Part shown: one piece after another, positions 4,178 through 56,446 of the stretch
Layout: each line of letters begins with the position of its first letter
Position numbering within the stretch: the stretch's first letter is position 1
Assembly: GCA_022393335.1 (NCBI GenBank)
Contig: JAJEKB010020847.1
Location: 154,140 to 218,139, forward strand
Source of the DNA: Macrotrachela quadricornifera
Taxonomy: Eukaryota > Rotifera > Eurotatoria > Philodinida > Philodinidae
Direction of reading: 5' to 3'
Length of the DNA stretch: 64,000 nt
Notes under the pieces: model-generated
Seen by the model: only the letters and a program-made list of their open reading frames with translations
Database searches by the model: none
What the model was told of the DNA's origin: nothing
Position numbers and translations under genes: made by a program

Positions 4178-7100
4178 TTAGTTGATATAAAAATCGTTTG
4201 TTTTATCATTTAATGTCAAAACTATATGTTTCAAAGGGGATACTTCATCCACTATGTTTTGTGCACGTTCTAAATATTTATTTGCTTCATCCATATTTTC
4301 TTGACGTGCATAAAGAATTGATAAATTATGTAATGTTCGCCAGATATACATATGATTAGCTGATAATGTTGCTTCTAGTATTTTCAATGCTGTTTCATAT
4401 ACTTCAAGAGCCATTTGATAATTTTTATTTGCCAAATGAACATTACCTATATTAATTCTTGCTATTACTAGATTTGGATGGAATGATGGAAGAGATCTTT
4501 CATAAATTTTCATCGCTGTTTGATATTTATTCAATGCTTGTTTAAACTAAATTAAAAGATTTTTAAAAAAATAAATAATATTTTAATGAAAGTTTTCTCA
4601 TACATTTTCTCGTTTATACTCCATAATACCTAAATTGATTAATAAACCAGCAACATCAACATGATCTTTCTCTGAACTGTTTTTATATAAATGCATAGCA
4701 CGTTCGAAACATTCATTAGCTTTTGTTTGTTCACCTTGTTCACTATAAACAGCTCCAAGTCTATTCATAGCTTTTCCAGCACTTGCTATACGTTTTGGCC
4801 CAGCATTTATAAGTAATTTATATGCTCGATTGAAACAAACTATTGCACGTTTTAAATCACCTTTCATACGATTTAGACGACCAAAATAAAAATATATACT
4901 AGCAATTTCATCATCATTGAGATATAATTCACCAAGAACTGTATCAAAATATCGTTCAGCTTGAATATATTCACCGATTTCAACAAGAAAATTACCAAAC
5001 ATTAATATTTTATTTGATTTAGTCATAGTTTCAACTAGAAAGTCCAAATAGTGAGTAATCACTTCAGCACCTTTATCAGTTGCATTGAGTTCTATATGCC
5101 ATAGATCTTCTTCAGTATTATATTTACATGAATTAATTTGAAATAATGCTCCTAAGAATAGAAAAAATATTAAAAACTATCCAATTGCTTACTTATACGA
5201 TGAAGAGTTATTTAGAAATTTTAGAAGAAAAAAACGATGGATGAGTATTTTTCAAGTAAATTTGGATAAGAGTAAGATAGAGAGAGCTCTGGCCTTCGCC
5301 ATTAGAAAACAGAGATAGAGATAAATCGAAATGAATACTATAAGATAAACCGACATAGTTTTTTCAACGACTTAAAACGACATTTCTGGAAAGAAATATA
5401 TTTTGTAAGGTGATGAAAATGATTTCTCAATAACCTCGTGTGCATTTGTATCACTGATAGAAGATCGAAATACTATATACAAGACTGAGATGTTCAGATC
5501 CATTCATTCAGAAGTTATAAGTATCAAAGTGAATATTCTAAAGCTGAAATTTCTATCAATTTCTGTGAAAAAAATTGACATATTTGAAAAATTGATAAAG
5601 AAAACTTTAAAAAATCTTCTGGAAAAACCGATATTATACATTTCAATACGTCTTCATCTTTTCTTTCTAATAGTGATATCCGCCCCATGTAAGTACGAAA
5701 CGCAAAGTCGATGCGTTGAAACGCAATCAGAAAAAATATTAACCACGTCTCAACACGTTTCTGAAAAACGTTTAACACGTTTAAACGCATCTTGTTTACT
5801 ATTTGCGTTTAAATGCGTTTCAAATAATTTTTCAGACGCGTTGGTACGCGTTTAGTTTTTGTAAATCGGATGAGATTTTACTCATCTAAAATTTTTTAGA
5901 CTTCTTGATAAAGAATGTCAAGATGACTTTATAATAGTCAAAAGTTCAATTAAACATACAGCAAATAATCCATATTTCTGTAAACTTTCTATGAATAGCA
6001 ATAAAACAATATTGTATTAATTTTCAGCTATCCATAACCCTTTCACTGAACTATATTAAATACTACTATTTAAATAATATTAATAACTTTTCATCATATT
6101 ATCTTGCTAAAAGATTTTATGAATAATTATCTATTCATTAAATCCTTCAATAAAATTATTTATCATGTGACCGAAAAAATGAAAAAAAAACATAATCTTA
6201 ATTGCATGTAGTAGACAATGAAAAAAGATATTATTTTATTAAAAACTAATAAAATTATTTAAAAAGATAAATCAAAAATCATATTATATGTTAAATATCT
6301 TAACTTCGAAAAAAGTACATCTTACTTATATAAAGTACTTAACCAATGAAACTCGCATTCAAATATATTTTATTTTAAGTAAGAAAAGATTTCGAGTTAG
6401 TGTAGATCAGTGGTGTATATAAACGACTTCTGATCACTGGTTCTTCTGTTCAAATCTGATCGTCATCGCTTAAGGTAAAATTCAATCCATTTCCCAGGAT
6501 AGGCTAAGACCATCGAAAAATGTTGATAATGGTGACTCAATTCGAATCTGAGATGGATTCGAATATATTTTTCAAAATCTTTAGATTTTTTATGAAACGC
6601 GTTCAGACGCTTAGAATGTTTCACTGAAGACGTGTTTTGAGGCAAAAAATATTCACATGGGGCAGCTCTCTATCTTGCTCCTATCAAAAGTTATTTGAAA
6701 GATGTTCACTAGACATTTTTTTAGAATAGGTGTTAGTAGTGGATGCAACAATAAATAAAATTCAAAATTATTAATTATACACTTTACTTCTAGTAATAGA
6801 AATCGTTATTTACTGATATTATCTGAAATTTTTTCTAGGTATGTTTATACTATTAGAAATATGAAGAAGATAAGTATTGTTTTTCTCTTACCAGTATCAA
6901 TGATAAATTGACCGTCATCAGGAAATGGCGAATATTGTTCAACATCAGCAATAACAATATTCTTAACAACATTTAAATCCACTGTATATTCAATTAGAAC
7001 ACGTATAAAACCTTTTTCTTTATATAATTTTGTTAGATAATTATCAGCAATTGAACGTTTACTACTTGTTGATAAATATTCAGTATTTGATATTAAATTT

Positions 7101-8165
7101 CCAATATTATTTTGATAATTCATTAGTTCATCTTGACTTAATATTTCAGAACGATAAAGTTTTAAAATATCTTTTTGTTTTTCTCTAAGTTTTTTACATT
7201 CGAATTCAAGTTGTTTATTTAAATTCGAAATAAAAAATCCAAGTGAAAATAAAATTGCATAATTTTTCGTTCGAAAAGTTCTATTGATTAATCTAAAAAA
7301 AATTTGAATAATTTTTATTTTCGTCTATATTGTTAACTTACGTGCGAAGAAAGTTTTCCTTTGTGTACCATGCTATAGCATCACTCGATTGATATGTTTG
7401 ATCAAATGCATCGATATTTGCTAATTCAGTTGTATTACCTCGATAATAAGATCGACATAGTTTTATCATTATATTTTTTGCACCAGCTAATCCTGATATA
7501 ATTTTTAAACCAAGTTTACACAATTGAAAATGTAAAAATGAAATTTGATCTTTTGGAATATAATATACTTTTTTTTCTTCTTTGTTGTACATATTCAATA
7601 GAGTTTTTTGTTGATGAACTTCTTCACGAGATCTATTTATTGCATTTTCAAGTTTAGTATAATTTTCACATAATTCATGTATATAAGTATGTTGTTTACC
7701 ACAAATTTCTCTAATCATACCAGATGGTGGAGAATAAAAAAATACACTATCAATTTGTTTTAATGGTTCAATTGATTCAATAAGAGTAATTGACGGTTCA
7801 TCATCAATTATTAATATTACTTTATCTGTTAGAGATTTTATATATTGTAAACACTTATATTCATAATTGAATATCTGAAAAATAAATTATGAAATTGTTA
7901 ATTTTATAAAAATAAGTTATAAACTTACTTGAATATCTTTATACGATTTTCGAAGAACATCAATTGTGTTTTGATCTTCTGTTGTTGATACAAAATAGAT
8001 TAATTTTACTCCATTGTAATGAGTTTCTATTTGTTCTTCTTCTTCTGCTTCTTCTTCTTGCTGTGTATCTGCATCCTGAATCACATCTTCTATTAAATGT
8101 TTTGATCTCCGTCTTTTTATATCTTGCACAATCCATTTAAAAAGCGGTATGTTAAAAAATGACAT
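4178..8165 (-). CDS. ART-TPR protein, copy A (predicted catalytically dead)
   Basis: Exons are 8165-7929, 7874-7342, 7292-6892, 5151-4604 and 4546-4178, with GT..AG at every junction and no stop, giving 695 residues. The N-terminus (MSFFNIPLFKW) leads into a basic and then Glu-rich stretch with about ten acidic residues. A globular N-terminal domain follows (VILIIDDEPS near 100). Next comes an ADP-ribosyltransferase domain with Arg304 in LYRSE, Ser-Thr-Ser at 331-333 and FPDDGQFIIDTGALFQI near 379. Six TPRs occupy about 430-670. In R-S-E ARTs the last motif is E-x-E; here it is D383-G-Q385, so transferase activity is unlikely. The family is abundant in bdelloids and its function is not established. 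Intron 3 is swollen to 1.74 kb by an inverted-repeat element carrying a nested insertion. No signal peptide is visible, so it is probably cytosolic. Confidence 0.88.
5235..6715. mobile_element. Old inverted-repeat element in intron 3 of copy A, interrupted
   Basis: The left end, near 5245-5310 with AGAGAGAGCTCTGGCCTTCGCC, is inverted and repeated at 6663-6710 with CAGCTCTCTATCTTGCTCC. Together they frame about 480 bp of non-coding DNA. The same element occupies the same place in intron 3 of copies B, C and D, so it was present before the gene duplications. In copy A it is split by the insertion at 5683-6662. Confidence 0.6.
5683..6662. mobile_element. 980-bp nested element with CCCCATGT termini
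   Basis: It starts CCCCATGT and ends ACATGGGG. It is absent from the equivalent intron position in copies B and C, which reads through GGAATCCACAGTTCTC. The left 160 bases carry a cluster of motifs such as AAACGC, ACGCGTTT and CACGTTTC in both orientations. A smaller set recurs near the right end (6590-6640). Such subterminal clusters are typical of transposase-binding arrays in DNA transposons (hAT, CACTA and others). It has no coding capacity and no clear target duplication. Confidence 0.6.
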
Positions 8166-9018
8166 AACTTTAAAATGAATGTTGATAATATGTATCTATT
8201 CGTTTATTGGTGAACGTGAAATATATACTCCTCTGATACACTTGATTGATTACAATGATTGTAAAAAAAGAAAAAAAAACGCATTATCTGACTATAAAGT
8301 ATACTGAATAATACTTTGTTTGATAAGAACATTTGGGAGAGAACTTCATTCAGATTTTCCTTAAATTCAGCTCATATCATTTTATAAGAATTAACGAATT
8401 TTTGATAAAAATATTTACTAATTAATTAATAAATGATTAATTCATTGAAAGTGTTATATGTGAAATACATATTCGATATTTTTTACTTTTATTTAATTTA
8501 TAGATTCAAAGATTAATGAATATATTTTATTATCACAAAAAGAAAACAAATCTATTCAATTCTGGAATCATTCCTATATAATATATTTATTTTTAATTTG
8601 TTTTATTTTCATACTACCAATCATTGTATTAATATTTAGATTAGAATTAGTCATGTTGATGATGACGCACTTTCGAAAGGTGATTTAAAATAGACATCAT
8701 ATTACCAATCATTGTATTAATATTTAGATTAGAATCAGTCTTGTCGATGATGACGCACTTTCGAAAAGTGATTAAAAATAGACAACCTTTTACGAATCAT
8801 TTCATTATTGTATCGAATTGGGTTATCTAGCAAAAAAAGATTTCGTCGCCATTTATTCACAATAAAAATAGATCTAATATTGACAATGTTTGAATTATTA
8901 TCGTTCAAATATTTGTACACATAATTCGTATAAAAGCATGTAAATTAGCTTTTTTTATTAAACTTCTTCTTCATCTTTGACAGTGGATTTTAAATATGTA
9001 TTAAGTATTGTTATATAA
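8166..9018. promoter_or_regulatory. 5' flank of copy A, shared with copy B
   Basis: This stretch is collinear with 29496-30260 upstream of copy B. On the gene strand a TATATATTT-like box lies about 60 bp before the ATG (plus-strand AAATATATACTCC near 8219-8231), a plausible TATA element. An 88-bp tandem duplication occupies 8609-8784 and is absent in B. The plus strand keeps an open frame from about 8505 to 8691 for the short membrane peptide seen intact at 29832. In copy A its ATG is changed (ATTCAAAG for ATGTCAAAG). Confidence 0.5.
8609..8784. repeat. 88-bp tandem duplication upstream of copy A
   Basis: The unit TCATACTACCAATCATTG..., 88 bases long, is repeated once, directly abutting, with a handful of substitutions. 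Copies B, C and D have a single unit. It covers the end of the divergent short open frame and duplicates the TTAGATTAGAAT(T/C)AGTC segment. It is a local event after the A/B split. Confidence 0.85.
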
Positions 9019-9990: not shown

Positions 9991-9999
9991 TCAGCTTGA

Positions 10000-26436: not shown

Positions 26437-29400
26437 TTAGTTGATATGAAAATCGTGTGTTTTATCATTTAATGTCAAAACTATATGTTTCAAAGGAGAT
26501 ACTTGATCCACTATGTTTTGTGCACGTTCTAAATATTTTTTTGCTTCATCCATATTTTCTTGACGTCCATGAAGAATTGCGAAATTATGTAATGTTCGCC
26601 ATATATACATATGATTAGCTGGTAATATTGCTTCCAGTATTTTCAATGCTGTTTCATATACTTCAAGAGCCATTTGATAGTTTCCATTTGCCAAATGAAC
26701 ATTACCTATATTAATTCCTGTTACCACTCGATCTAGATGAAATAATGGAAGAACACGTTCATAAATTTTCATCCCTTCTTCATATTTATTCAATGCTTGT
26801 TTAAACTAAATTAAAAGATTTTTAAAAAAAATAATATTTTAATGAAAGTTTTCTCATACATTTTCTCGTTTATACTCCATAATACCTAAATTAATTGATA
26901 AACCAGCAACGTCAATATCATCTTTCGGTAAACTTTTTTTATATAAACCCATAGCACGTTCGAAACATTCATTAGCTTTTGTTTGTTCACCTTGTTCACT
27001 ATAAACAGCTCCAAGTCCATTCATAGCTTTTCCAGCACTTGCTATACGTTTTGGTTCAGCATTTATAAGTAAATTATATGCACGATAGAAACAATTTGTT
27101 GCATGTTTTAAATCACCTTTCATACGATTCAAACGACCAAAATAAAAATATATACCAGCTATTTCATCATCATTTGGACGTAATTCATCAAGAACTGTAT
27201 TAAAATATCGTTCAGCTTGAACGTAATCACCCATTTCAATAAGTAAATTACCAAACATTAATATTTTATTTGATTTAGTCATAGTTTCAACTAGAACGTC
27301 CAAATACTGAGTAATCACTTCAGCATCTTTATCAGTTGCATTGAGTTCTATATGCCATAAATCTTCTTCAGTATTATATTTACATGAATCAATTTGAAAT
27401 AATGCTCCTAAGAATAGATGATTACAAACATAACAATTTCTTATTCTAAGCAATAGAAAAAAACCGAAAACAATCAAATTGCTTACTTATATGATGAAGA
27501 GTTATTTAGAAATTTTAGAAGATAAAATGGTGGGTGAATATTTTCAAATAACTTTTGATAAGAGTAAAATAGAGAGCTGTGGCTTTCGCTATTAGAAAAC
27601 GGAGATAGAGATAAATCGAAATGAATACTATAAGATAAACCGACATAGTTTTTTCAACGAATTAAAACGACATTTCTGCAGAAGAATGTATTTTGCAAGG
27701 TGAAGAAACTGATTTCTCAATAGCCTCGTGTGCATTTGTATCACTGATAGAAGATCGAAATACTATATACAAGACTGAGATGTTCAGATCCATTCATTCA
27801 GAAGTTATAAGTATCAAAGTGAATATTCTAAAGCTGAAATTTCTATTAATTTCTATGAAAAAGAAAATAGATATTTTTGAAAAATTGACAAAGAAAACTT
27901 TAACAAATCTTCTGGAAAAATCGATATTATACATTTCAATACGTCTTCATCTTTTCTTTCTAATAGTGGAATCCACAGTTCTCTATCTTGCTCCTACTAA
28001 AAGTTTTTTGAAAGATGTTCACTAGACATTTTTTTAGAATAGGTGTTAGTAGTGGATGCAACAATAAATAAAATTAAAAATTATTAATTATACACTTTAC
28101 TTCTAGTAATAGAAATCATTATTTAGTAATATTATCTGAAATTTTTTCTAGGTATGTTTATACTATTAGAAACATGAAAAAGATATTTATTGTTTTTCTC
28201 TTACCAGTATCAATGATAAATTGACCGTCATCAGGAAATGGTGAATATGGTTCAACATCAGCAATAACAATATTCTGAACAACATTTAAATCCACTGTAT
28301 ATTCAATTAGAACACGTATAAAACCTTCTTCTTTATATAATCTTGTTAGATAATTATCAGCAATTGAACGTTTACTACTTGTTGATAAATATTCAGTATT
28401 TGATATTAAATTTCCAATATTATTTTGATAATTCATTAGTTCATCTTGACTTAATATTTCAGAACGATAAAGTTTTAAAACGTCTTTTTGTTTTTCTCTA
28501 AGTCTTTTACATTCGAATTCAAGTTGTTTATTTAAATCCGAAATGAAAAAACTAAGTGAAAATAAAATTGCATAATTTTTCGTTCGAAAACTTCTATTGA
28601 TTAATCTAAAAAAAATTTGAATAATTTTTATTTTCATCTATATTGTTAACTTATTTCTGATTCTATTAACTTACGTGCGAAGAAAGTTTTCTTTTGTATA
28701 CCATATTATAACATCACTGGAGTCATATATTTGATCAAATTCATCGATATTTGCTAATTCAGTTGTATTACCTCGATAATAAGATCGACATAGTTTTATC
28801 ATTATACTTTTTCCACCAGCTAATCCTGATAAAATTTTTAAACCAAGTTTACACAATTGAAAATGTAAAGATGAAATTTGATCTTTTGGAAGATTATATA
28901 TTGTTATTGCTTCTTTGTTGTACATATTCAATAGAGTTTTTTGTTGATGAACTTCTTCACGAGATCTATTTATTGCATTTTCAAGTTTAGTATAATTTTC
29001 ACATAATTCATGTATATAAGTATGTTGTTTACTACAAATTTCTCTAGTCATACCAGATGGTGGAGAATAAAAAAATACACTATCAATTTGTTTTAATGGT
29101 TCAATTGATTCAATAAAAGTAATTGACGGCTCATCATCAATTATTAATATTACTTTATCTGTTAGAGATTGTATATATTGTAAACACTTATATTCATAAT
29201 TGAATATCTTAAAAATAAATTATGAAATTGTTAATTTCATAAAAATGAATTATAAACTTACTTGAATATCTTTATAAGATTTTCGAAGAACATCAATTGT
29301 CTCTTGATCTTCTGTTGTTGATACAAAATAGATTAATTTTACTCCATTGTAATGAGTTTCTATTTGTTCTTCTTCTGCTTCTTCTTCTTGCTGTGTATCT

Positions 29401-29495
29401 GCATCCTGAATCACGTCTTCTATTAAATGTTTTGATCTCCGTCTTTTTATGTCTTGCGTAATCCATTTAAAAAGCGGTATGTTAAAAAATGACAT
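26437..29495 (-). CDS. ART-TPR protein, copy B (predicted catalytically dead)
   Basis: Exons are 29495-29262, 29207-28675, 28605-28205, 27407-26860 and 26805-26437, giving 694 residues with no stop and canonical splice sites. The domain order is an acidic N-terminus, a globular domain (VILIIDDEPSITFIE), an ART domain (LYRSEILSQDEL, EYLSTSSKR, YSPFPDDGQFIIDTG), the linker GALFQIDSCKYNTEEDLW, and six TPRs such as YFGRLNRMKGDLKHATNCF and ANGNYQMALEVYETALKIL. The catalytic E-x-E is D-G-Q, as in A and C. All introns are short except intron 3 (797 bp), which carries the old inverted-repeat element. Its body is very close to copy C and its 5' flank is close to copy A. TPR number and spacing suggest a protein-binding superhelix. 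The biological role is unknown. Confidence 0.9.
27530..28022. mobile_element. Inverted-repeat element in intron 3 of copy B
   Basis: The left arm (27535-27600, with AAATAGAGAGCTGTGGC) is about 80% complementary to the right arm (27958-28020, with CCACAGTTCTCTATCTTGC), around a 360-bp centre. The same structure lies in intron 3 of copies A, C (about 40085-40570) and D (about 54370-54890). It is a fixed, pre-duplication MITE. The short frame it creates on the plus strand is not a gene. Confidence 0.7.
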
Positions 29496-35359: not shown

Positions 35360-35825
35360 ATTGGAAAAACGAAAAATGTTGTATCAAACAGCTTCACAAT
35401 AAAGAATACGAAAAAATATCTAAAACAGCTTTCACATAGCACATAATAAAGTTGAAATGAGGAATATTAGAGGTAATTTGCTGATATTATAGCTTCATTA
35501 CATAAATAGCATGTTAAGGGCATCGTGTTCTTATGCGCCAAACTTACACTATTACATTATCGGGATCAGTAGCGAGTACCTCCACTAGTTTGGTACAAAA
35601 TTCATTATCTCTTGTATTGGAAATTATAGGCAACACCCCCCTGGAATAATATTATTTCCAACCATGTACAATCAATTAAAAGAGAATATTAAATTACTTT
35701 CAACTAATCATGTAAAATTTAATTCAAAAAAAAATTTCATTTCATTTTCTATTAATACATTAAATCAAATTATATGAAATATGATTTGTTTTTTTTCATA
35801 ATTATCAACAAGAGATGATCTTGAT
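35360..35825. other. Helitron tail and spacer
   Basis: The first 80 bases still translate as a diverged Helitron C-terminus (KTKNVVSNSFTIKN). Beyond that no gene is visible. CTAG at about 35584 could be the Helitron 3' end, but I see no strong preceding hairpin. Confidence 0.35.
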
Positions 35826-38953: not shown

Positions 38954-41900
38954 TTAGTTGATATGAAAATCGTGTGTTTTATCATTTAATGTCAAAACTA
39001 TATGTTTCAAAGGGCATACTTCATCCACTATGTTTTGTGCACGTTCTAAATATTTATTTGCTTCATCCATATTTTCTTGACGTCCATGAAGAATTGCTAA
39101 ATTATGTAATGTTCGCCAGATATACATATGATTAGCTGGTAATGTTGTTTCCAGTATTTTCAATGCTGTTTCATATACTTCAAGAGCCATTTGATAATTT
39201 TTATTTGCCAAATGAACATTACCTATATTAATTCCTGCTACCACTCGATCTGGATGAAATAATGGAAGAACACGTTCATAAATTTTCATCCCTTCTTCAT
39301 ATTTATTCAATGCTTGTTTAAACTAAATTAAAAGATTTTAAAAAAAAATAATATTTTAATGAAAGTTTTCTCATACATTTTCTCGTTTATACTCCATAAT
39401 ACCTAAATTAATTGATAAACCAGCAACGTCAATATCATCTTTCGGTAAACTTTTTTTATATAAACCCGTAGCACGTTCGAAACATTCATTAGCTTTTGTT
39501 CGTTCACCTTGTTCACTATAAACAGATCCAAGTCCATTCATAGCTTTTCCAGCACTTGCTATACGTTTTGGTTCAGCATTTATAAGTAATTTATATGCAC
39601 GATTGAAACAATTTGTTGCATGTTTTAAATCACCTTTCATACGATTTAGACGACCAAAATAATAATATATGCCAGCGATTTCATCATCATTTAGACGTAA
39701 TTCACCGAGAATTGTATCAAAATATCGTTCAGCTTGAACGTAATCACCCATTTCAATAAGTAAATTACCAAATACTAATATTTTATTTGATTTACTCATA
39801 GTTTCAACTAGAAAGTCCAAATACTGAGTAATCACTTCAGTACCTTTATCAGTTGCATTGAGTTTTATATGCCATAAATCTTCTTCAGTATTATATTCAC
39901 ATGAATTAATTTGAAATAATGCTCCTAAGAATAGATGATTAGAGAACAAAACAATCTCTTATTGTAAACAATAGAAAAAAACATCAAAAACCATCAAATT
40001 GCTTACTTATACGATAGAGAGTTATTTAGAAATTTTAGAAGAAAAAAAGCCTATTCTAATGCCTATGCAGAATAAAAAGGCTGATGAATATTTTTTCAAA
40101 TAATTTTTGATAAGAGCGAGATAGAGAGCCGTGGCTTTCGCCATTAGAAAAAGGAGATGGAGATAAATCGAAATGAATACTATAAGATAAACTGACATCG
40201 TTTTTTCAACGACTTAAAGCGACATTTCTGGAAAGGAATATATTTTGTAAGGTGATAAAAATGATTTCTCAATAACTTCGTGTGCATTTGAAAGAGTAAC
40301 GAAAGTTCTAAATACTATATACAAGACTGATATGTTCAGATCCATTCATTCAGAAGTTATAAGTATCAAAGTGAATATTCTGAAGCTAAAATTTCTATCA
40401 ATTTCTATGAAAAAGAAAAAAGATATATTGAAAAATTGACAAAGAAAACTTTAACAAATCTTCTGGAAGAACCGATGTTATATATTTCAATACGTCTTCA
40501 TCTTTTCTTTCTAATAGTGGAATCCACAGTTCTCTATCTGGCTCCTACTAAAAGTTATTTGAAAGATGTTCACTAGACATTTTTTTAGAATAGTTGTTAG
40601 TAGTGGATGCAACAATAAATAAAATTAAAAATTATTAATTATACACATTACTTCTAGTAATAGAAATCATTATTTACTGATATTACTTTAAATTTTTTCT
40701 AGGTATGTTTATACTATTAGAAATATGAAAAAGATATTTATTGTTTTTCTCTTACCAGTATCAATGATAAATTGACCGTCATCAGGAAATGGTGAATATT
40801 GTTCAACATTAGCAATAACAATATTCTGAACAACATTTAAATCCACTGTATATTCAATTAGAACACGTATAAAACCTTCTTCTTTATATAATCTTGCTAG
40901 ATAATTATCAGCAATTGAACGTTTACTACTTGTTGATAAATATTCAGTATTTGATATTAAATTTCCAATATTATTTTGATAATTCATTAGTTCATCTTGA
41001 CTTAATATTTCAGAACGATAAAGTTTTAAAACATCTTTTTGTTTTTCTCTAAATTTTTTACATTCGAATTCAAGTTGTTTATTTAAATTCGAAATAAAAA
41101 ATCCAAGTGAAAATAAAATTGCATAATTTTTCGTTCGAAAAGTTCTATTGATTAATCTAAAAAATTTGAATAATTTTTATTTTCATCTATATTGTTAATT
41201 TATTTCTGATTCTATTAACTTACGTGCGAAGAAAGTTTTCTTTTGTATACCATATTATAGCATCATTGGAGTTATATATTTGATCAAACTCATCGATATT
41301 TGCTAATTCAGTTATATTACCTCGATAATAAGATCGACATAGTTTTATCATTATATTTTTTGCACCAGCTAATCCTGATACAATTTTTAAACCAAGTTTA
41401 CACAATTGAAAATGTAAAAATGAAATTTGATCTTTTGGAAGATTATATATTGTTATTGCTTCTTTGTTGTACATATTCAATAGAGTTTTTTGTTGATGAA
41501 CTTCTTCACGAGATCTATTTATTGCATTTTCAAGTTTAGTATAATTTTCACATAATTCATGTATATAAGTATGTTGTTTACCACAAATTTCTCTAATCAT
41601 ACCAGATGGTGGAGAATAAAAAAATACACTATCAATTTGTTTTAATGGTTCAATTGATTCAATAAGAGTGATTGACGGTTCATCATCAATTATTAATATT
41701 ACTTTATCTGTTAGAGATGTTATATATTCCAAACACTTATTTTCATAATTGAATATCTTAAAAATAAATTATGAAATTATTAATTTCATATAAATGAATT
41801 ATAAACTTACTTGAATATCTTTATAAGATTTTCGAAGAACATCAATTGTCTTTTGATCTTCTGTTGTTGATACAAAGTAAATTAAATATATTCCGTCGTA

Positions 41901-42047
41901 ATGAGTTTCTATTTGTTCTTCTTCTTCTGCTTCTTCTTCTTGCTGTGTATCTTCATCCTCATTGAGGTCTTCTATTATTGGTTTTGATCTTCGTCTTTTA
42001 ATATCTCGTGTAATCCATTTAATAAGCGGCATGTTAAAAAACGACAT
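38954..42047 (-). CDS. ART-TPR protein, copy C (mosaic; predicted catalytically dead)
   Basis: Exons are 42047-41811, 41756-41224, 41156-40756, 39924-39377 and 39322-38954, giving 695 residues with an intact frame. The N-terminus MSFFNMPLIKWITRDIKRRR with SKPIIED is the copy D version. From the Gln/Glu-rich stretch onward the sequence follows A/B. The ART domain has Arg304, STS 331-333 and D383-G-Q385 in place of E-x-E. Six TPRs follow (GNLLIEMGDYVQAERYFD, YFGRLNRMKGDLKHATNCF, YSEQGERTKANECFERA and others). Intron 3 is 831 bp with the shared inverted-repeat element, and the other introns are 54-67 bp. The breakpoint between D-like and B-like sequence lies near 41940-41970 inside exon 1, so this copy also has a D-like promoter. 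It is probably cytosolic. Confidence 0.9.
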
Positions 42048-42965: not shown

Positions 42966-43269
42966 ACTGAATCCAACTTAACTGATACGTTACGTATCTA
43001 TCTTGTGAGACGTAAAGAGCTATACATTAAAAATTTTTCAAAAAAACTTTTTTTCAGAATTTCAATGATTTTCAAACGCTATTTCACTTAGAGTTCGACG
43101 GTGATTCCGAATACGAGGGTCTCAGCACGTATTTTTTGGGCCGAAAACATGTTTAAATGCCACTCGTTCTTTTTGCGAAGAACAAGATAGAGTCTATAAA
43201 GAATGCAACTCATATAACATCATCTAGGCAATGAAAGATTTCCATGCAAAAAAGGAATATAAATGAATT

Positions 43270-43693
43270 GACAATACTGTAGAGTTTTTTAGTTTAGAAA
43301 ACGATAACAATAGAAGAAATAATCTGGCGAGCTGGTGCCGATCGCATGATCTTGTCATTACAAACACTTAGTTCAAGAATCATCCACGTAGACTATGGAT
43401 ATGGTGACGCCTCAGACACTGGGCTAGAATTCAAATAGATTATAATATGGATCCTCATCACTTTAGACGTTTTAGAAGGAGTGCAAATTGAAGGATGTAA
43501 CTGTAATAACCTCAGATATGTAGATGACATCGAAATAATTCCCAGTATCAAAGAAGACCTCTACAGAATGATTGATGCGATTTCAAAAGAATGCATAAAG
43601 ATGGAACTGTCAGTGGATGTTAAGAAATCAGAATGCATGAGTATTTCAAAGAAGAAAGGTTCACCAACAGGTAATGTGAATATGAATCAATGA
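43270..43693 (+). pseudogene. LINE fragment (endonuclease tail joined to RT motif C)
   Basis: The left part translates as NNLASWCRSHDLVITNT, then KNHPRRLWIW and RIQIDYN, as in the endonuclease end of CR1/jockey-like LINEs. It passes abruptly to CNCNNLRYVDDIEIIPS and LSVDVKKSECMSISKKKG, the RT palm with YVDD. The intervening RT is missing, so this is an internally deleted scrap of about 420 bp. Its family differs from the LINE at 16.9-22.2 kb (FADD). Confidence 0.65.
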
Positions 43694-44185
43694 TTGAACA
43701 AGTACAAGTACAGTAGGTAGAAGTACATCTACTTTCTATTTAACATATGTACTAAGTATTTGTATCTAAGTTCAATGTACTTGGTACCAGTACTAGGTAC
43801 ATTTGTTCTTAGATATAATCTAGCGTTTAGCTCTGATTATCATTCATACATTAATATTTATTATTCTTTAAGGTAACGACATCTATAATAATGAAAAAAA
43901 ATAGGAATGTCAGTAACATCATTGTATATTCATATTGACAAACATAAAATCAATAAAATTTGAATTTTGCCACTACAAATGATTAGTTTTACAAATAAGA
44001 CATTTATCAAAAACGATATAACATAACTAATGCTTATTGGTAAGATTTCAACCCAAGAATGGCTGGATGATTTGAGTAACAAAGCATAACACCAGCTAAT
44101 TATTTTATAGTTAACCACATTCTTTTTCTTGAAAATATTTTTTTTCTTTGAATATTCGTAAACGAGCAATGTTTAGTGGACAACG
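43694..44185. other. Spacer, no feature recognised
   Basis: GTAC-containing short words recur between 43700 and 43800 (AAGTACAAGTACAGTAGG, GTACTTGGTACCAGTAC) as a loose simple repeat. No gene is visible. Confidence 0.4.
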
Positions 44186-47100: not shown

Positions 47101-47984
47101 TACAAAACGAAAAATTTGTTGAAAATTTATAAAAATTTCGAGTGCTCGGAATAGCGACCATTCGAAGCCCCACGAACTTGACCCATCGAAACCACGAAAA
47201 TTCATCGAAGATGGGTGCATCGAGGCTATCGGATTTGTAGGTCGACCCTTCGGAGTGCCACTTTCCGATAGGAAGATGGGTTTGCGACGGGTCAACAATT
47301 CTCAGTTTTATCAACCTATCGAAAGCCTCAGATCGACATATCGAAATACTTATCGAGTGACAGCTTGGGGATATAAAAGAAAATGTCTCTTATTGCTCAA
47401 AGCTTGTTCAATAACTTGATGCATCTATTAAAAGAAGATTTTCTGGTATAATAGCTCGTTTATCTTTAAATGATGTTAGTGATAATGATGGTTTCGGTGA
47501 TCCATTATATTTTATAGCAGCAGTATTTGATTGAGAATTTAAAATTTTATTGAGTTCATAATTTGTAAATGTCAGCTCAAATAGAAAATCATTTAAAACA
47601 AAATATAATTCAACTAATTATCGATGAAATGGTTAAGAAATCGAAAAAATCAACAACTGATCTATATGCTCCTAGTTTGTTTTGAATAGCATCACCATAT
47701 TCAACCTCGATACCAAAAGCAAAAATAAAGCGTAGAAAACTGTTTGATTATAATGATAGCAGTTTGGATAATTCTAATGAAACAACAACACTTGATTCAG
47801 CGGTTGAGCTAGATCCATATCTCAATGATCCAGTTAGAAGTAAATTTGCTGGTTATTAGTCTTGTTCCCAACTGAACGCATCTTTTTTCAAGCTGGATTT
47901 ATCTTAAATTCAAGAAGAACGAGTATAACTGAACACCTATCTCGAAATTTAATTCTTTTACGTACTAATCAACAGTTCTTATAA
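44186..47984 (+). pseudogene. hAT transposase with BED finger, interrupted and decayed
   Basis: A BED-type zinc finger (LCKLCNQHYQDKNG, KHLKRQHSSEHQK) lies at 44210-44310. The RNase H-like core begins at 44512, with HVTLKIDGWSDRRYRSFICI and KIFKIITENASSMIKAF. After an AT-rich gap, YGGAFADDENLPNC and RDGLKEASFIPRIF (45250-45385) resume it. KELVDVLESFYKISIKRQTE follows to about 45757. The gene is then split by a 1.6-kb insert and continues at 47371 (IKENVSYCSKLVQ). It ends with the dimerisation motif FPTERIFFQAGFILNSRRTS and LSRNLILLRTNQQFL before TAA at 47982. Many stops are present. It is unrelated in detail to the hAT relic at 22.4-24.6 kb. Confidence 0.78.
45765..47370. mobile_element. 1.6-kb TCGA-rich insertion in the hAT gene
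   Basis: The insert is flanked by ATAT on both sides (45761-45764 and 47371-47374), and its removal rejoins the hAT frame (...SNREN-IKENVSYC...). Both ends, about 45780-46200 and 47010-47355, are dense in TCGA and TCGAAA words in both orientations, giving an imperfect terminal inverted region. CCCATTCTGTC near the left end resembles the complement of the right end, CCCAAGCTGTC. The centre is AT-rich with no transposase. Frames in these parts are translations of the repeats. Confidence 0.6.
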
Positions 47985-49266
47985 AATAATTATACTAAGT
48001 TTATGATTTAAAGTATCTCTTGTGATTATATGCTTCTCATTGGGTATTTATTTTTGACTATATTAATTTGTTCATTTGCTAAGACATATTTATAAGGTGT
48101 TCTTTTTTTTAACTAATAAATATTTTAACTGCTTACCAAGACATCTTCTTTTATTCGTCATCACGTGCTATCATAAAGTCATATAAAAGTCAACTTAATA
48201 AAAGCTTCTGAGAAAAAAAATGTCGTAACAAAAAAATAATATCAGAAGCGTAGAAATATGTGTCAAAAAAAAATAGAAGTTAACTGTGAACTCCATCCTA
48301 ATATTTTTTCGTAACTTCTATCGCTTCTGTTGTCCAATCGAAACGCTGTGAAATCCTCTTCAAAATTTGATATAGACTTTAACATGAAAATTCCAAACAA
48401 GACAAGTCAGCACATTATACGCGAGGCAAAAAAAATAAAAACTTTGTGAATTTGACATTCTCTTCGACTTGAACCTTTTCTTTACCTATTATTTCGATGA
48501 AAAAGCTTTGGTACTTTCAAATATGCTCTTTTTTTTAGTTGATAGAAATTTATTCTGAGAAAAGATGGTATGCTGCAGAACCAACTTTCAAGAGTACATC
48601 AAAAACTGAAAACCTAGTTTTCGCTACTGTACTCAACAAGATATTGGAAACAGAATCAGCGTTTTGACCGTGCGGCAAGGGGAGAAGAGCAATCTCATCT
48701 ATCAAAAACAAAACAAATCTGACCTATAAATCTTTTGTATCGATGAAGTTATAGAACTTTTACTACAAATATTAACTTATAGATGAGATTCGTAGTTAAT
48801 TTTTATTTTTTGTGACGTATATTTCTAAGCTGATAACTTTCCTACTATATGCATTAGAGAGAACCAGTCATAGATTATTTTATAGAGCATCTTTCCATCA
48901 TAGAGACGAATTTTTAAAGATTTGTTTTAAGACAAAAACTTTAATTCTACAAATTAAGTCAAGATTTCTGGACTACCCTTTATGAAAATGCTGATTAGTT
49001 GTTTCATCTGAAAGAATATTAATCTTTTAAAATATTTTAATTTTAAATATGAGTATTTGTAATATTCAACTGTCTATAAGTTAGAAGCATCAGCTATTTG
49101 TTTATTATATTGTATTTTATTCAACAATGTATCATATTAAAGAGATTTTCACAGTGATAAATTGTTTTACATTATAATATAAGATAAAAAATTAAATAAA
49201 AGCTACTCTTATATAAAATACTAAAAAAACCTTTGTTTAATGTCCATTACAAATATAGTTGTATTC
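47985..49266. other. Spacer between hAT relic and copy D
   Basis: No gene is visible. The last 150 bases before 49267 resemble the 3' ends of the other ART-TPR copies. The rest does not match their flanks, so copy D's 3' flank has been replaced or has diverged. Confidence 0.45.
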
Positions 49267-52200
49267 TTAGTTGATATAAAAATCATTTATTTTGTCATTT
49301 AATGTCAAAAATAGATGTTTCAAAGGGAATACTTGATAAACAATTTCTTGTGCACGCTCTAAATATTTTTTTGCTTCATCCAAATTTTGATGTGCATAAA
49401 GAATTGCTAAATTATGTAATGTTCGCCAAATATACATATGATTAGCTGGTAATATTGTTTCCAATATTTTCAATGCTGTTTCATATACTTCAAGAGCCAT
49501 TTGATAATTTTTATTTGCCAAATGAATATTACCTATATTAATTCCTGCTACCACTCGATCTGGATAAAATGATGGAAGAGAATTTTCATAAATTTCCATC
49601 GCTTCTTCATATTTATTCAATGCTTGTTTAAACTAAATTAAAAGATTTTAAAAAAAATATTTTTTTATCAAACTTTTCTCATACATTTTCTCGTTTATAC
49701 TCCATAATACCTAAATTGATTAATAAACCAGCAACATCAACATCATTTTTCTCTATACTTGCGTCATATAAATCCATAGCTTGTTCGAAACATTCATCAG
49801 CCTTTCTTTGTTGGCCTCGTTCACTGTAAGCAACTCCGAGTCCATTCATAGCTTTTCCAGCACTTGCTATACGTTTTGGTTCAGCATTTATAAATAATTT
49901 ATATGCACGATTGAAATAATTTGTTGCACGTTTTAAATTACCTTTCATACGATTTAAACGACCAAAATAAAAATATATACCAGCTATTTCATCATCATTT
50001 GGATGTGATTCACCAAGAATTGTCTCTAAATATCGTTCAGCTTGAACGTAATTACCCATTTCAATAAGTAAATTACCAAAGAATAATATTTTATTTGATT
50101 TACTCATCTTTTCCTTCTGATATTCTATATATTGAGCAACTAAATCGGCACTTTTATCAGTTGCATTGAGTTCTATATGCCATAAATCTTCTTCAGTATT
50201 ATATTCACATGAATCAATTTGAAATAATGCTCCTAAGAATAGATGATTACAAAACAAATCAATCTCTTACTTTAAACAAAAGAAAAAAATATCGAAAAAC
50301 ATGATATGTGTTACTTATATTGTTTTGGCCTATATTTAATTTCTCAGTGTATAGTTCGTCGGTCGCAAAAAGCGACTCCAAACTAGGTTTTCGGCTCTAG
50401 TTCCGATTACTAAAAATGAAAAAAACATGATTTCGATTTGTTTTCCAAAATATTACATGAAATCGAAACTGTTAATCATCACATAGATATGAAAATTTTC
50501 AATATACTTTAAGAAATTTTTACTATTGAATTAATGAGATTAAAGATGCCACATATTTCAATATTAATAAATATGATTCTGCATTTCATTCATAATTGTT
50601 TGTTGAATGTGGGGCAAAGATTTTGCAAGTATCACGTTTCAAGAGGCCTAGATGCCTTTGTATCAATGTTCACCACTATTAAATTGGCTCATAAATTCTG
50701 TATGTTTGCTTTTATGTTTTAGGCATATTTCAGGCTTTATATCCTATGATTTGAAGGTTTTGCATCTATATCACTTTCCAAACGCGAGATATAAATGTTA
50801 AAATTTGCCTAAAACACAGGAAAAAATCATGCATGTATTGAGTACTAATCTAATGCTTTCAAAAGTAGCAACTTTAGAAAGTTCTTGTACTTTTCTTCTA
50901 TCGTTGCCCTTTTCTCTATTCAACGTGGATATACTCAATACTTAAGTGCCTTCCCGAAGTGTACACTTGAATTGGGCGAGGTTGGCAAAAAAGTAAAAAA
51001 TATTTTTCTACATTTCGCTGTATAATGTGAAATTTTTTAGGAAGACAATATTGAATCATCTTGACTTTTTTTTATCATACATAAAACTTTTTGTTTCCTC
51101 TGTTGTGCAGATTGCAACATGATCAATTCAGTCTATCGAGAGTGATACTAAAATAAGTATCAAACTGTTTCTCTACAAAATAAGTGAAAATGCAATTTTT
51201 GAAAAAATAACTTGGGCTTTCCATAAAATAATAATACGAAATATCAAGCTATTTACAATCGTTTGGTTACTTGAATCAAATTTATTTTTTTACAAGACAC
51301 ACCACTTAGGTCTGACCAAAAGTTCTAAGAACATTACATAAAAGTATAAAGATAAGGAGATATTTTTAGTTTTGTTTTATCAAATGTTGAGGATAGTTGG
51401 CAGTATTATTTATTCCAAGACCAATTCTTTCTAACGATTAGTTAAAAGTTTTTTCGAAGTCTTTTTCGAAAAAAGTTTTAAGTACCTTGGATATTGCATG
51501 AGCTAGTCAAGTTTCATTTGTTTTAAAAATTCAGCAAAAGTTTGTTCGATCATGCCAGTTGTGTTCTAGCACTACTAGGGATAGATCATGGATTTTTTTT
51601 AGATAGGTCAGTCAAAAGTCATTTGATGTCAGCTGGCTTATTGAAGACGAATCATCTAACACTGCTGTTCATGAAGACAGATTTTGATCAAAACTTTCTA
51701 TGATGTATTCTTCAAATTAAATAATTCTGAGTATAGGTAAAGACAAGATCGTAGAGTATGAGTGCTATATCGAAAATTGTCTGAAGCCCTTTTTTAATGG
51801 AATAGGAAAACAAATAGAGACATCAGGTTCAAAATGCACAAAGATGCTTGATGATCATCGGTGACTTCATACTCATTCAATGTTATTAATTATTTGATAG
51901 AAGAAAGTAACAATATAATGTCGTATCTACCATATTTGCCAGGCCTGATGCTATGTAATTTCTGACTAACTAATTTTATTAAACGTAGTTTAAGTAATTA
52001 AATAAGTGAAACTTGATTAGCTCATGCAATATCCAAGGTACCTAAAACTTTTTTCGAGAAAGACTTCGAAAAAACTTTTAACTAATCGTTAGAAAGAATT
52101 GGTCTTGGAATAAATAATACTGCCAACTATCCTCAACATTTGATAAAACAAAACTAAAAATATCTCCTTATCTTTATACTTTTATGTAATGTTCTTAGAA

Positions 52201-55200
52201 CTTTTGGTCAGACCTAAGTAACTATATTCTGACTGGCTTTTTTTTTCAATAGCAATATGATTCCTTTATAGATGTCAAGTTGGATTCATTTTTTATTTGA
52301 AATAACTATTTGATACAACTAAACATATCTCAATTCATCATACGGACGCTACTATAGAGTAGTAAACGCACTAAGATAAAAAAGTAGAATTTTTCATATT
52401 AACATTTTTGAACAAGGTTTCTAAACACAAGTGTTTTCACAGTTAAATTGACAGCAGTCGCTGACGCCATCTTGGAAACAGAAAGTATTTTTTCTGATAG
52501 TTTGTTGTGAAAGAACAAACTAGAAAGTACTATCTATTGAGATTTGATGAGACTGATCCAATAAATAGGCGAGACAAATGGTCTCAAAATTTTAAGGTGG
52601 AATACCTATTGAATAAATTCATGTCATTTTCAAATGTCTGAAAAGCTTTGTGCGTGCATAAGAAAATTTATTCAATGAATTTTGAGGCTCTCATTCTATG
52701 ATGGAAATATTAGTGAGCGTGTAGAGTTGAGATTTGAACAATGGTTGGAAACTTAAAAACTCGTATTTTCTCATGACTAAAATTATGAAAATCGTTAGAA
52801 ATGAGAAAAATAAGCAAGTTTTAGTGACTTAAGAAATTTTTCAAAATGAAAAAAGGTCGGTAAAGACCGACTGGTCTGATACCGGTCTATTGTTTCGGTT
52901 CCTAGCCTATTTTGGGGATCGTCGAACTTAGCCTTCCTGACAGTGGCATCCCTATTCATACTCACAAACTATGAATGTACTGAGAAAATATGATACCTAC
53001 TAAACACTAAATTTCTTACTAAGTATAAACTAACTTTTTAGTGAGCAATAAATTATACTGAGCATTTGAGGTATTCCCTATTATTTTACTACAATAAATA
53101 ACAAATAGGTGTTTTATCAAAAAATTAGAATTTTGTGAGTGAGTTTGAACATAATATTATAATAAACAAAAACCATATTCTTTGAGTCATCTGATATAAT
53201 TTTTTGTTTGAGTTCAAACCGCAACATTATGTATATTTTTCTGTATGCGTACTAATATCACTACCCAATTGTGAAAAGCATGATATGTAAATACGAAAAC
53301 TGTTTACGATTAGTTCATGTTTCGTCAAAAAATTACATTCTCATCATCGCAGCCGCTTTTAAAATGCTTTGAACCCTTCATCCTCACTGAATTACTTTTC
53401 GACGAAACAAAAATGCACCCATTGTAAAGAACAATATGGATTTTGATAATTATTTTATTTAAGTGCTCTTTCTATTTTAAAAAAATTCTATCACATTATT
53501 TAAAAAGCTTGTCAGCGCAAGCCCTTCGAAGCTAAAATGTGGAACTCACATATTCTTATACGCTAAGAGTTGTGTTACTTGAAATTTTTTATTATGTTAT
53601 TACTCTACATTGATAGATGTATATATGCAGCAAAGCTTTAGGTGAAAGAGAACGATGATAGACCATAGCAATCATTTATTATGTGGTGTCTACTATAATG
53701 GAGAGATGTTTCCAATGGAAGGTGCTTGTAATAGAACTTGTCTGTAATGGCACCTGTCTGTAAGTGGAGGGATGTCTATAAAGGAGGGTGTCTGTAAGGG
53801 ACATGTCTATAAGGGAGAGGGAGCTGGAAAACCTCGACTTAATGAAACTTGCATTTACTATTTTTCTTCGAAAAACTACGTAAATTTCACAAAAATATGA
53901 TTTTTGTTTTCCATTATTTTATGTTTATACTCAATTATAAAATTCTACATTGCTGATAAAGCACCTATTTATTGATACAACAGTGAACAATAATCCAATC
54001 ATACTAAATAATTAAATGATGATAGTCATTTTTAATTAGTACTGATCAATTAATTTAAATCATAGTGATTAGATAGTCCTTATAGTCTTCTCCATGTTTT
54101 TTTGCAACTATACCTACCAGGTGGTCATTTGTACCATGGTTATCATGGACATTTTAACCGCCTTACTGGCAGACTGATAGATACAGGCGATTTTAGGTTT
54201 CTAGGCTTTAGCCTTTCAGCCTAGAGAACAACATGTCAAACAATTAATCAAAATTAAATTGTTTATTTGTACAACGAAGAGTCATTGAGAAATTCTATAA
54301 GAGGAAAATACGTACTACTAGTAGTAGTGGGTGCAACAATTCTTTTCATTGTTCCTTAATTTTGATGCCCATTTCAAAAATAAGGCACGTGAATATTTTT
54401 TGAATAACTTCCGATAGAAACGAAATAGAGAGCTGCAACTTTTACCATTGGAAAGTGGTTAAATTTCATAAACCAGTAGTAATCAATGATCATCTTACAA
54501 GAGATAATCGTTGTCCTATAAGGATAGAATGAATTCTAAATTTTAAGGAGTGGGCTAGAATCACTAGCTGACGAATTACAAAATTATACGTAAAGCTTGA
54601 TTCAATGCTTTACTATTTTAAGACTTCTAGGTGTCATATTCGACAATCCTACTACACTTTACCAACAATTTCTGTAAAAGATCTCAGTTTTTTTGAAAAA
54701 ATTAGACCTTTTTTTAAAGACATTGCTTCATTCAAAAATCCGAGTTAAAAGTCATTATCTTGTGTGTGATTCGATATCTTTTCATCTGCTCTCTACAATG
54801 GTGAAAACCGCAGCTCCCTATCCTGTTCCTATCGAAAGTTATTCAACAAAAATACTCACATGCCTTATTTTGTCAAATGGATATCAGTTACTTGATAGAT
54901 CTACGAGTCTTTATTAACAAAAATTAAAGACTTTCCGAATAAAATAAAAAAAAGATCGAAAGAAGTTCAAAACTATTCATTTTATAGAACCAACTATTTC
55001 TTCCGATCAAGAGAAATTTCTAAAGCCAATAAACTCTAGCTCTCATACACCGTAAACATATTATTTCTATTAATAAAAACGATTGCGTATTGATGCTATC
55101 TTGGAATTTTTCGATCTTTTCTATGTATATCCATTATCTTATATTATTATGGATATGGTAAAGAAATTTATTGTTATTCTCTTACCAGTATCAATGATAA

Positions 55201-56446
55201 ATTCAGCTTCATCAGGAAATGGTGAATATTCTTGAACATCAGCAATAATAATATTCTGAACAACACTTAAATCCACTGTATATTCAATTAAAGCACGTGT
55301 AAAACCTTCTTGTTTATATAATTTTGTTAGATAATCATTAGCAATCGGTCGTTCACTAGTTGTTGATAAATAGTCAAGATTTGATATTAAATTTCCAATA
55401 TTATTTTGACAATTATCTAAGTCATCTTGACTTATTGTTATAGTACGATAAAGTTTCAAAACATCTTTTTGTTTTTCTCTAAGCTTTTTACATTCGAATT
55501 CAAGTTGTTCACTTAAATCCGAAATATAAAAGCTAAGTGAAAATACAATTGCAAAATTTTCCTTTCGAAGAGTTTTATTAACTAATCTAAAAAGATTTCA
55601 ATATATTTTTTCTTTTCATTTTGTTAACCTACTTGTAAAGAAATGTTTCTTTTGTATACCATGCTATGGCATCACTCGTTTGATATGTTTCATCAAAATC
55701 ATCGATATTTGCTAATTCAGTTAAATTTCCTCGACAATAAGATCGACATAGTTTTATCATTATATTTTTTGCATCAAATATTTTCGAGATATTTTTTAAA
55801 GCAAGTTTAATTAATTGAAAATATACGAATGAAATTTGATCTTTTGGAAGATAATATATTTTTTTTTCTTCTTTGTTGTACATATTCAATAGAGTTTTTT
55901 GTTGATGAATTTCTTCACGAGATTTATTTATTGCATTTTCAAGTTTAGTATAATTTTGACATAAATAATATATATAAGTATGTTGTTCACTACAAATATC
56001 TGTAATTATATTAGATGATGGAGAATAAAAAAATACAGAATCAATTTGTTTTAATGGTTCAATTGATTCAATAAAAGTTGTTGATGGTTCATCATCGATT
56101 ATTAATAATATTTTATCTGTTATAGATTTTATATATTCCAAACAATCATTTTCATCAGTAAATGTCTTGAAAATAAATTAGCAGATTATCAAATTTTTAG
56201 AATGGGTTGTAAACTTACGTGAAAATCCTTATACGATTTTCGAAAAATATCAATTGTATTTTTGTCTTGTGTTGTTGATACAAAATAAATTAATTTTATT
56301 TCATTATCATGAGTTTCTACTTCCTTTTTTTTTTGCTCTCTATCATCATCTTCATCGTCAGTGATGTCTTCTACTATTGGTTTTGATCTTCGTCTTTTAA
56401 TATCTCGTGTAATCCATTTAAGAAGCGGCATGTTGAAAAACGACAT
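49267..56446 (-). CDS. ART-TPR protein, copy D (catalytic Glu retained)
   Basis: Exons are 56446-56219, 56165-55633, 55586-55186, 50232-49685 and 49632-49267, giving 691 residues with no stop. The exon plan is identical to A-C, except a shorter acidic stretch in exon 1 and one codon fewer in exon 5. The ART domain has Arg301 (LYRTITISQDDL), Ser-Thr-Thr at 328-330 (DYLSTTSERP) and FPDEAEFIIDTG, with E380-A-E382 as a proper E-x-E. It is the only copy expected to transfer ADP-ribose from NAD+. TPRs follow as in the others (YFGRLNRMKGNLKRATNYF, YSERGQQRKADECFEQA). Intron 3 spans 4952 bp and holds a long hairpin element and other insertions, so correct splicing should be checked. It is the most diverged copy and may be nearest the ancestral form. 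Confidence 0.86.
50233..51303. other. Copy D intron 3, left part
   Basis: No gene is visible. A 62-codon plus-strand frame at 50534-50722 shows no family features. The material is absent from intron 3 of the other copies. Confidence 0.4.
51304..52219. mobile_element. 916-bp foldback element in intron 3 of copy D
   Basis: Arms of 213 bp (51304-51516 and 52007-52219) are about 98% inverted complements, starting ACTTAGGTCTGACCAAAAG. They enclose a 490-bp centre without coding capacity. No target duplication is obvious. The transcript of copy D must pass through this hairpin. Confidence 0.85.
52220..54364. other. Copy D intron 3, right part
   Basis: No gene is visible. A segment near 53690-53835 with GTCTGTAAGGGAC and GTCTATAAGGGAG words and GAAAACCTCGACTT resembles one end of a pogo-like transposon. 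Near 52855 there is a short GGTCGGTAAAGACCGAC palindrome. Confidence 0.4.
54365..54890. mobile_element. Inverted-repeat element in intron 3 of copy D
   Basis: The arm at 54375-54462 (AAATAAGGCACGTGAATATT, GAGAGCTGCAACTTTTACC) pairs with 54792-54882 (CGCAGCTCCCTATCCTGTTC, ATGCCTTATTTTG). It is the orthologue of the element in intron 3 of copies A-C, with longer recognisable arms here. It probably best preserves the original ends. Confidence 0.65.

What the first reader, a model, noticed from the sequence alone, without database searches (positions are those of the whole stretch)
4178..56446. Four-copy ART-TPR array with three apparent pseudoenzymes and one copy keeping the catalytic Glu
All four genes have uninterrupted spliced frames and conserved exon sizes, so they look maintained. 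Yet A, B and C share D-G-Q where the ART E-x-E motif should be, while D has E-A-E. Losing the catalytic Glu while keeping the full fold and TPRs suggests a binding, decoy or regulatory role paired with an active enzyme. I know of no described system of this kind.
Basis: partly seen in the sequence, partly recalled or inferred. Interest (0 to 1): 0.75.

Follow-up and report, generated by a model that had tools for sequence, protein, structure and literature searches.

The report
Rotifer ADP-ribosyltransferase genes losing catalytic glutamate
A rotifer chromosome carries four side-by-side copies of a modifying enzyme, three of which have lost the one residue the reaction needs yet have stayed whole, which suggests that these animals keep 'dead' versions of the enzyme for some other job next to a version that looks able to work.

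Summary
Confirmed and extended. The window, from an unnamed bdelloid-like assembly, holds four intact five-exon genes (A-D; 695, 694, 695, 691 aa) with a receiver-like domain, an R-S-E ADP-ribosyltransferase (ART) domain and TPRs. A, B and C carry Gln where D carries the catalytic Glu. Of 133 informative homologue rows, 132 have Glu there and one Asp. The own genome holds a fourth Gln copy on a colinear second contig, three further Glu copies, and two copies of another clade with His/Thr/Gln for Arg/Ser/Glu, a second independent loss. The ten genes modelled are uninterrupted. dN/dS is model-dependent (about 0.4 to 1.1 between window copies), but Gln copies show no higher omega than Glu copies, and about 16 nonsense changes would be expected in the Gln clade against none seen. 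C is a chimera: 5' end like D, body like A/B. D's exons 1-3 were not found on the second contig as far as read. Best reading: maintained pseudo-ARTs beside live-looking paralogues. Activity, NAD+ binding, partners and expression are untested.

The parts
4178..8165 (-). gene A, 5 exons (8165-7929, 7874-7342, 7292-6892, 5151-4604, 4546-4178), 695 aa, Gln copy
26437..29495 (-). gene B, 5 exons (29495-29262, 29207-28675, 28605-28205, 27407-26860, 26805-26437), 694 aa, Gln copy
38954..42047 (-). gene C, 5 exons (42047-41811, 41756-41224, 41156-40756, 39924-39377, 39322-38954), 695 aa, Gln copy; 5' end like D
49267..56446 (-). gene D, 5 exons (56446-56219, 56165-55633, 55586-55186, 50232-49685, 49632-49267), 691 aa, Glu copy with complete R-S-E and E-x-E
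6908..6910 (-). A codon CAA, Q385, in place of the catalytic Glu
28221..28223 (-). B codon CAA, Q384
40772..40774 (-). C codon CAA, Q385
55202..55204 (-). D codon GAA, E382, the catalytic Glu
50233..55185 (-). D intron 3, 4953 nt (1740, 797 and 831 nt in A, B and C), splitting the ART domain shortly after the catalytic motif
51304..52219 (.). element with 220-nt inverted arms (98%) inside D intron 3; its edge is where colinearity with the second contig ends
42048..42947 (-). 900 nt upstream of C: shares sites with D rather than with A, B and L039 within 300 nt of the ATG and at -800 to -701; mixed from -700 to -301

Best explanation
A, B and C are full-length paralogues of a bdelloid ART-TPR enzyme that lost the catalytic Glu once, in their common ancestor (shown: codons, open frames; single origin by parsimony on the tree). 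Without that Glu, which contacts the 2'-hydroxyl of the nicotinamide ribose, they should not transfer ADP-ribose or hydrolyse NAD+ at a normal rate (inferred from ART mechanism). They keep Arg and Ser, so they may still bind NAD+ (inferred). They most likely act through their TPR and receiver-like domains as non-catalytic binders that share targets or partners with Glu-bearing paralogues such as D, and so dampen, titrate or scaffold the active enzyme (inferred). C, a Gln body behind a D-type 5' end, would be expressed with D (inferred). The separate His/Thr/Gln clade has also lost the Arg and Ser that hold NAD+ and would be a pure scaffold (inferred).
For: Gln at a position that is Glu in 34 of 34 homologues aligned and in 132 of 133 informative homologue rows, one Asp. 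R-S-E site fixed by the match to Vis; PF01129 found in 7 of 7 profile members at E up to 0.1; Foldseek of the P0003 model lists Vis 4xzk, E 9.4e-7, though with rmsd 16.1 over 223 columns. Arg and Ser kept in A, B, C and L039. L039 on the colinear contig has the Gln too. Ten of ten close paralogues modelled are uninterrupted. About 16 nonsense changes expected in the Gln clade if unconstrained, none seen. Omega of the Gln clade is not above that of Glu lineages: 0.56 against 0.73, or 0.82 against 1.13, by two frequency models. Two independent losses. C-D sharing at the 5' end.
Against: No transcript, protein or activity data. NG86 0.74-1.09 and an opportunity ratio 0.77-1.13 do not differ from neutral; GY94 in the ART domain alone rejects 1 in 3 of 6 pairs, and among A, B, C only for A-B; B-C is 0.92. 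D's exons 1-3 were not found on the second contig as far as read, so D is not shown to be present on both. The genome has at least 150 ART hits, so D need not be the partner. Pocket loops are identical in 52 of 57 columns among the Gln copies against 185 of 216 for the ART domain, but the His/Thr/Gln pair shows 53 of 57 against 210 of 216 and three Glu copies 44 of 57 against 185 of 216: suggestive at most.
Confidence: 0.5

Rival explanations
1. The Gln copies are still enzymes, by substrate-assisted catalysis or on another acceptor, like mono-ARTs of the PARP branch that lack the third-position Glu.
For: PARP7, 10, 11, 12 and 14 are listed as M with Ile or Leu at the third position (table of PMC7955679, passages; M read here as mono-ADP-ribosylation). 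Arg and Ser are kept. PMC10789625 warns that loss of activity in ARTs is hard to establish (passage).
Against: Those cases are in the H-Y-E branch; none is known to me in the R-S-E branch (recalled). Replacing both Glu of E-x-E by Ala in two R-S-E toxins restored yeast growth (PMC7764402, passages). Glu is otherwise nearly invariant in this family.
Confidence: 0.15
2. A-C are relaxed duplicates on the way to becoming pseudogenes; the Gln is an early lesion.
For: NG86 and opportunity-based N:S ratios are near neutral; the ART domain between B and C has about 20 non-synonymous to 4 synonymous differences.
Against: No stop or frameshift in the ten copies modelled although about 16 nonsense changes are expected in the Gln clade; coding length changes between A-D are multiples of three while non-coding alignments show 0-7 gap openings each; Glu lineages show the same or higher omega; the Gln is shared with the copy on the second contig, and the Gln copies number three on one contig; GY94-F3x4 rejects omega = 1 over the whole gene for 6 of 6 pairs (2dlnL 11.2-26.7).
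Confidence: 0.2
3. The family diversifies under conflict (immunity or stress response); Gln copies are decoys or receptors whose TPR surface is what is selected, and loss of catalysis is incidental.
For: Fast amino-acid change with open frames in Glu and Gln copies alike, copy number differing between the two contigs, exchange between copies, very large family.
Against: No target, pathogen or site-level test of positive selection; omega above 1 in the branch classes appears only with non-coding base frequencies.
Confidence: 0.15

Closest known systems
Vertebrate ARTC3 and ARTC4 (PF01129)
   Same: R-S-E branch ARTs thought to be inactive (PMC10789625, passage); ART3 reads K-L-V and ART4 G-S-E in the table of PMC7955679 (passage; that table still marks both M).
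   Different: Surface or extracellular proteins that lost the Arg (ART3 the Ser and Glu as well); here only the Glu is lost, in a protein with receiver-like and TPR domains, in tandem with a Glu copy.
PARP9 and PARP13
   Same: ART-fold proteins without the full motif; PARP13 listed as inactive (PMC7955679, passage), PARP9 called likely inactive as a writer and working in a complex (PMC10789625, passage), although PMC7955679 marks PARP9 M with ubiquitin as target.
   Different: H-Y-E branch, other domains, not tandem siblings of a close live-looking copy.
LRRC9 pseudo-ART family
   Same: Predicted pseudo-ART combined with a repeat domain, proposed for defence (PMC7955679, passages).
   Different: LRR instead of TPR; classical active site not detectable there.
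Bdelloid ART-TPR proteins (Rotaria, Adineta, Didymodactylos)
   Same: Direct relatives with the same architecture, up to 57% identity.
   Different: Of 133 informative homologue rows 132 keep Glu.
Vis, an R-S-E ART of Vibrio splendidus (organism recalled)
   Same: ART fold and E-x-E position.
   Different: The matched chain is an ART domain of 239 residues; receiver-like and TPR parts do not match it.

Membership tests
R-S-E ADP-ribosyltransferases (ARTC, PF01129) | ART fold | tested here: met
   Profile match to Vis, PF01129 in 7 of 7 homologue pieces at E up to 0.1, model of homologue P0003 lists 4xzk (rmsd 16.1). D itself scores 18.5 bits, below the 22.3 cut-off, and C gives no hit; A-D were not themselves modelled
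R-S-E ADP-ribosyltransferases (ARTC, PF01129) | Arg and Ser of R-S-E | tested here: met
   A-D keep both; L047 and L048 do not (His, Thr)
R-S-E ADP-ribosyltransferases (ARTC, PF01129) | catalytic Glu in A, B, C | tested here: not met
   Gln, codon CAA
R-S-E ADP-ribosyltransferases (ARTC, PF01129) | catalytic Glu and E-x-E in D | tested here: met
   GAA GCT GAA
R-S-E ADP-ribosyltransferases (ARTC, PF01129) | enzymatic activity | not testable with these tools
   needs purified protein
Pseudoenzymes (ART branch) | lack of a conserved catalytic motif by sequence, in an intact protein | tested here: met
   definition from the abstract of PMC10211241 (search listing)
Pseudoenzymes (ART branch) | maintained by selection | tested here: inconclusive
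   open frames say yes, dN/dS depends on the model
Pseudoenzymes (ART branch) | non-catalytic cellular role | not testable with these tools
   no expression or interaction data
TPR proteins | tandem TPR motifs | tested here: met
   TPR_12 E 1.6e-31 in D, 2.9e-30 in C (A and B were not scanned)
CheY-like receiver fold (N-terminal domain) | alpha/beta fold | tested here: met
CheY-like receiver fold (N-terminal domain) | phospho-acceptor Asp and partners | not tested
   none; receiver-like only

The most novel reading that the evidence does not exclude
In this bdelloid the ART-TPR family has repeatedly turned enzymes into Gln-bearing pseudo-ARTs that are kept on both haplotypes beside Glu-bearing siblings, and one of them (C) has been put under the active copy's promoter by recombination: an evolving writer / pseudo-writer module in which the ratio of live to dead copies tunes ADP-ribosylation.
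Probability: 0.25. Interest if true: 0.7.

Novelty: new variant of a known kind. Interest (0 to 1): 0.5.

Why it matters
Here are young dead copies and close live-looking copies side by side, two independent origins of the same Gln, and two contigs that differ in copy number, in an animal group with a very large ART family. ADP-ribosylation is an enriched term among over-expressed genes after desiccation and radiation in Adineta vaga (PMC10809525, passage), and among under-expressed genes in spaceflight (PMC12220480, passage); neither passage names this family. That makes what a dead ART does, and how fast it takes on a role, directly testable.

Tried and rejected
Catalytic Glu elsewhere in A-C: rejected; the loop aligns without gaps in A-D and the site is nearly invariant. 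Gln as an error in one copy: rejected; three window copies and a fourth on another contig have it, and D differs at three neighbouring codons. NG86 dN/dS near 1 taken alone: not accepted, because third positions are 88% A/T and coding p-distance lies below flank or intron divergence in 11 of 13 comparisons (exceptions B-C 3' flank and C-D 5' flank). GY94-F3x4 alone: not accepted either, since the opportunity method and MG94 with non-coding frequencies give higher values. By domain GY94 rejects 1 in 4 of 6 pairs (N-terminal part), 3 of 6 (ART) and 5 of 6 (TPR) at 3.84. Class differences in omega (four classes against one, 3 df): 2dlnL 5.29 and 8.69 for all codons, 1.05 and 1.81 for the ART domain; Gln against Glu alone was not tested. 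Of 78 columns at least 85% conserved in homologues, A keeps 69, B 68, C 69, D 72. The ART fold is not among the 50 rows listed for the P0026 model, a list filled by the receiver-like domain. Relatives fetched but not modelled: L049 and L050 (42% and 45% over exon 3); L050 gave only partial exon hits. Literature, by search listing: bdelloid with ADP-ribosyltransferase, 0 papers; rotifer with pseudoenzyme, 0; two of rotifer, ADP-ribosyltransferase, tetratricopeptide, 106 with 20 listed; bdelloid with ADP-ribosylation, 13 with 12 listed; bdelloid with ribosyltransferase, 10; two of Rotaria, tetratricopeptide, gene family expansion, 76 with 10 listed; none of the listed titles is a study of this gene family. 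PMC11258130 (fungal infection) has no hit for ribosyl or TPR terms in its main text. Supplementary files were not searched.
Full report

The catalytic site. A profile of seven homologues matches Vis (4xzj, E 2.3e-8) and puts the second Glu of P-E-E-x-E-V-L on the second Glu of its K-E-A-E-V-L, that is, on E-x-E. In an alignment of 34 homologues this Glu is the only invariant column; in another of 36 it is one of seven. Across 140 aligned rows (A-D and 136 homologue rows, from the 43 proteins and the 120 listed of 143, overlapping), it is Glu in 133 (132 homologue rows and D), Gln in three (A, B, C), Asp in one (P0108), and three fragment rows have a gap. A, B and C read D-D-G-Q, D reads D-E-A-E; all four keep Arg and Ser.

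More copies. A search of the own genome with exon 3 of C scored 150 of 1,566 candidates; the 30 best were fetched. Of 29 informative at the site, six have Gln and 23 Glu. The six are A, B, C; L012/L039 on C4433 (92% identical over exon 3); and L017/L047 and L018/L048 on C4449 and C4934. The last two have His for the R-S-E Arg, Thr for the Ser, and Gln-Ala-Gln (CAA GCT CAA) for E-x-E. Six of the eight fetched relatives were modelled (L039, L041, L045-L048): all are uninterrupted with exon sizes 533, 401, 548 or 551, 369 or 375; start codons of five were set. L049 and L050, more distant, were not modelled. In a tree with 20 homologues, A, B, C and L039 form one clade (100/100) with D as sister (100/99), and L047 with L048 form a clade outside the other eight (100/100); A with L039 is weak (84/68), the root is a midpoint, some homologue branches are long, and the motif columns were left in. 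By parsimony Gln for the catalytic Glu arose twice.

Two colinear contigs. C4433 runs parallel to the window, mostly at 92-97% identity: C4433 324-333 kb with window 1-8,919 (one Gln copy), 334-341 kb with window 30,156-36,597, 346-351 kb with 42,793-48,259, 356-359 kb with 48,242-51,313. It has one Gln copy where the window has A and B, no copy where the window has C, and exons 4-5 of D (95.5% and 92.3% identical). D's exons 1-3 were not found in C4433:337,000-376,999; beyond that nothing was read. Colinearity stops at the edge of an inverted-repeat element in D's intron 3 (51,304-52,219) and resumes at window 63,258. The exon-3 search returned no further D-like exon, but it scores only the best candidates. 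A more distant Glu copy (L041) lies about 20 kb from the Gln copy on C4433, outside the colinear part. Such contigs are most simply the two homologous haplotypes (inferred). An assembly gap could explain the missing D exons, and exchange between haplotypes could explain the shared Gln.

Selection. NG86 gives dN/dS 0.74-1.09 for the six window pairs, all bootstrap intervals including 1. GY94-F3x4 gives 0.37-0.50 and rejects 1 for 6 of 6 over the whole gene (2dlnL 11.2-26.7), but for 3 of 6 in the ART domain. A count against mutational opportunity taken from flanks and introns gives 0.77-1.13, none significantly below 1. MG94 on ten genes gives one ratio of 0.75 or 1.17 by frequency model; by class, Gln clade 0.56 or 0.82, Glu lineages 0.73 or 1.13, His/Thr/Gln clade 0.95 or 1.56, stem to the Gln clade 0.82 or 1.51 (2dlnL 5.29 or 8.69, 3 df). 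The absolute value is unsettled, not least because third positions are 88% A/T. Under both frequency models the Gln copies show no higher omega than the Glu copies. Frames say more: nonsense makes up about 6.2% of mutational opportunity, so about 16 stops are expected in the Gln clade from its synonymous changes and none is seen (Poisson P about 8e-8). That estimate assumes the flank spectrum and no purging by exchange between copies.

Exchange between copies. Near the start codon C shares sites with D, not with A, B and L039; from about +100 on it shares with A, B and L039. Split at +70: 70 to 29 upstream, 6 to 137 downstream (Fisher P 7e-30; sites are linked and the split was chosen after looking; between -700 and -301 the signal is mixed). 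So C is a Gln body behind a D-type 5' end. In part of exons 4-5, A is nearer to D than to B by 2-3 points.

Mechanism. The catalytic Glu contacts the 2'-hydroxyl of the nicotinamide ribose; Arg and Ser stabilise bound NAD+ (PMC10789625, passages). Losing only the Glu should leave a protein that can bind but not turn over NAD+ (inferred). In the Gln clade the loops around Arg, Ser and the motif are identical in 52 of 57 columns, against 185 of 216 for the ART domain; other groups do not show the same (44 of 57 against 185 of 216 in L041, L045, L046; 53 of 57 against 210 of 216 in L047, L048), and no test of significance was run. The likeliest role is a TPR-bearing binder that shares partners with Glu-bearing siblings. 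The His/Thr/Gln clade would be a scaffold without NAD+. Nothing here shows activity, binding or expression.

Known or new. ART-fold proteins thought inactive are known: ARTC3, ARTC4, PARP9, PARP13, and the predicted LRRC9 family (passages). What appears new, within the searches listed in Tried and rejected, is a young tandem set with live-looking and dead copies, a repeated Glu-to-Gln change, and an exchange of the 5' end. I rate it a new variant of a known kind.

Noticed in passing
162-767 +: Open frame with a protoglobin domain (PF11563, E 2.1e-29); protoglobins are known to me from prokaryotes (recalled), so a candidate for horizontal acquisition.
   Followed up: no
35826-36449 -: Cobalamin adenosyltransferase (PF01923, E 9.1e-47) between copies B and C.
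   Followed up: no
17775-18401: Near-perfect palindrome, 281-nt arms 96% complementary with 65 nt between, overlapping reverse-transcriptase-like frames.
   Followed up: no
G000 (whole assembly): Very large ART family: 150 of 1,473 candidates scored with PF01129, all over the cut-off; some lie in open frames of more than 2,000 residues.
   Followed up: partly
P0005, P0010, P0012, P0026, P0045: Five homologues have Leu for the Ser of R-S-E while keeping the catalytic Glu: another possible route of degeneration in the family.
   Followed up: no
proteins A-D, residues about 50-150: Receiver-like domain with an L-I-I-D-D motif at the N-terminus of an animal ART protein (the fold is from a homologue model).
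   Followed up: partly
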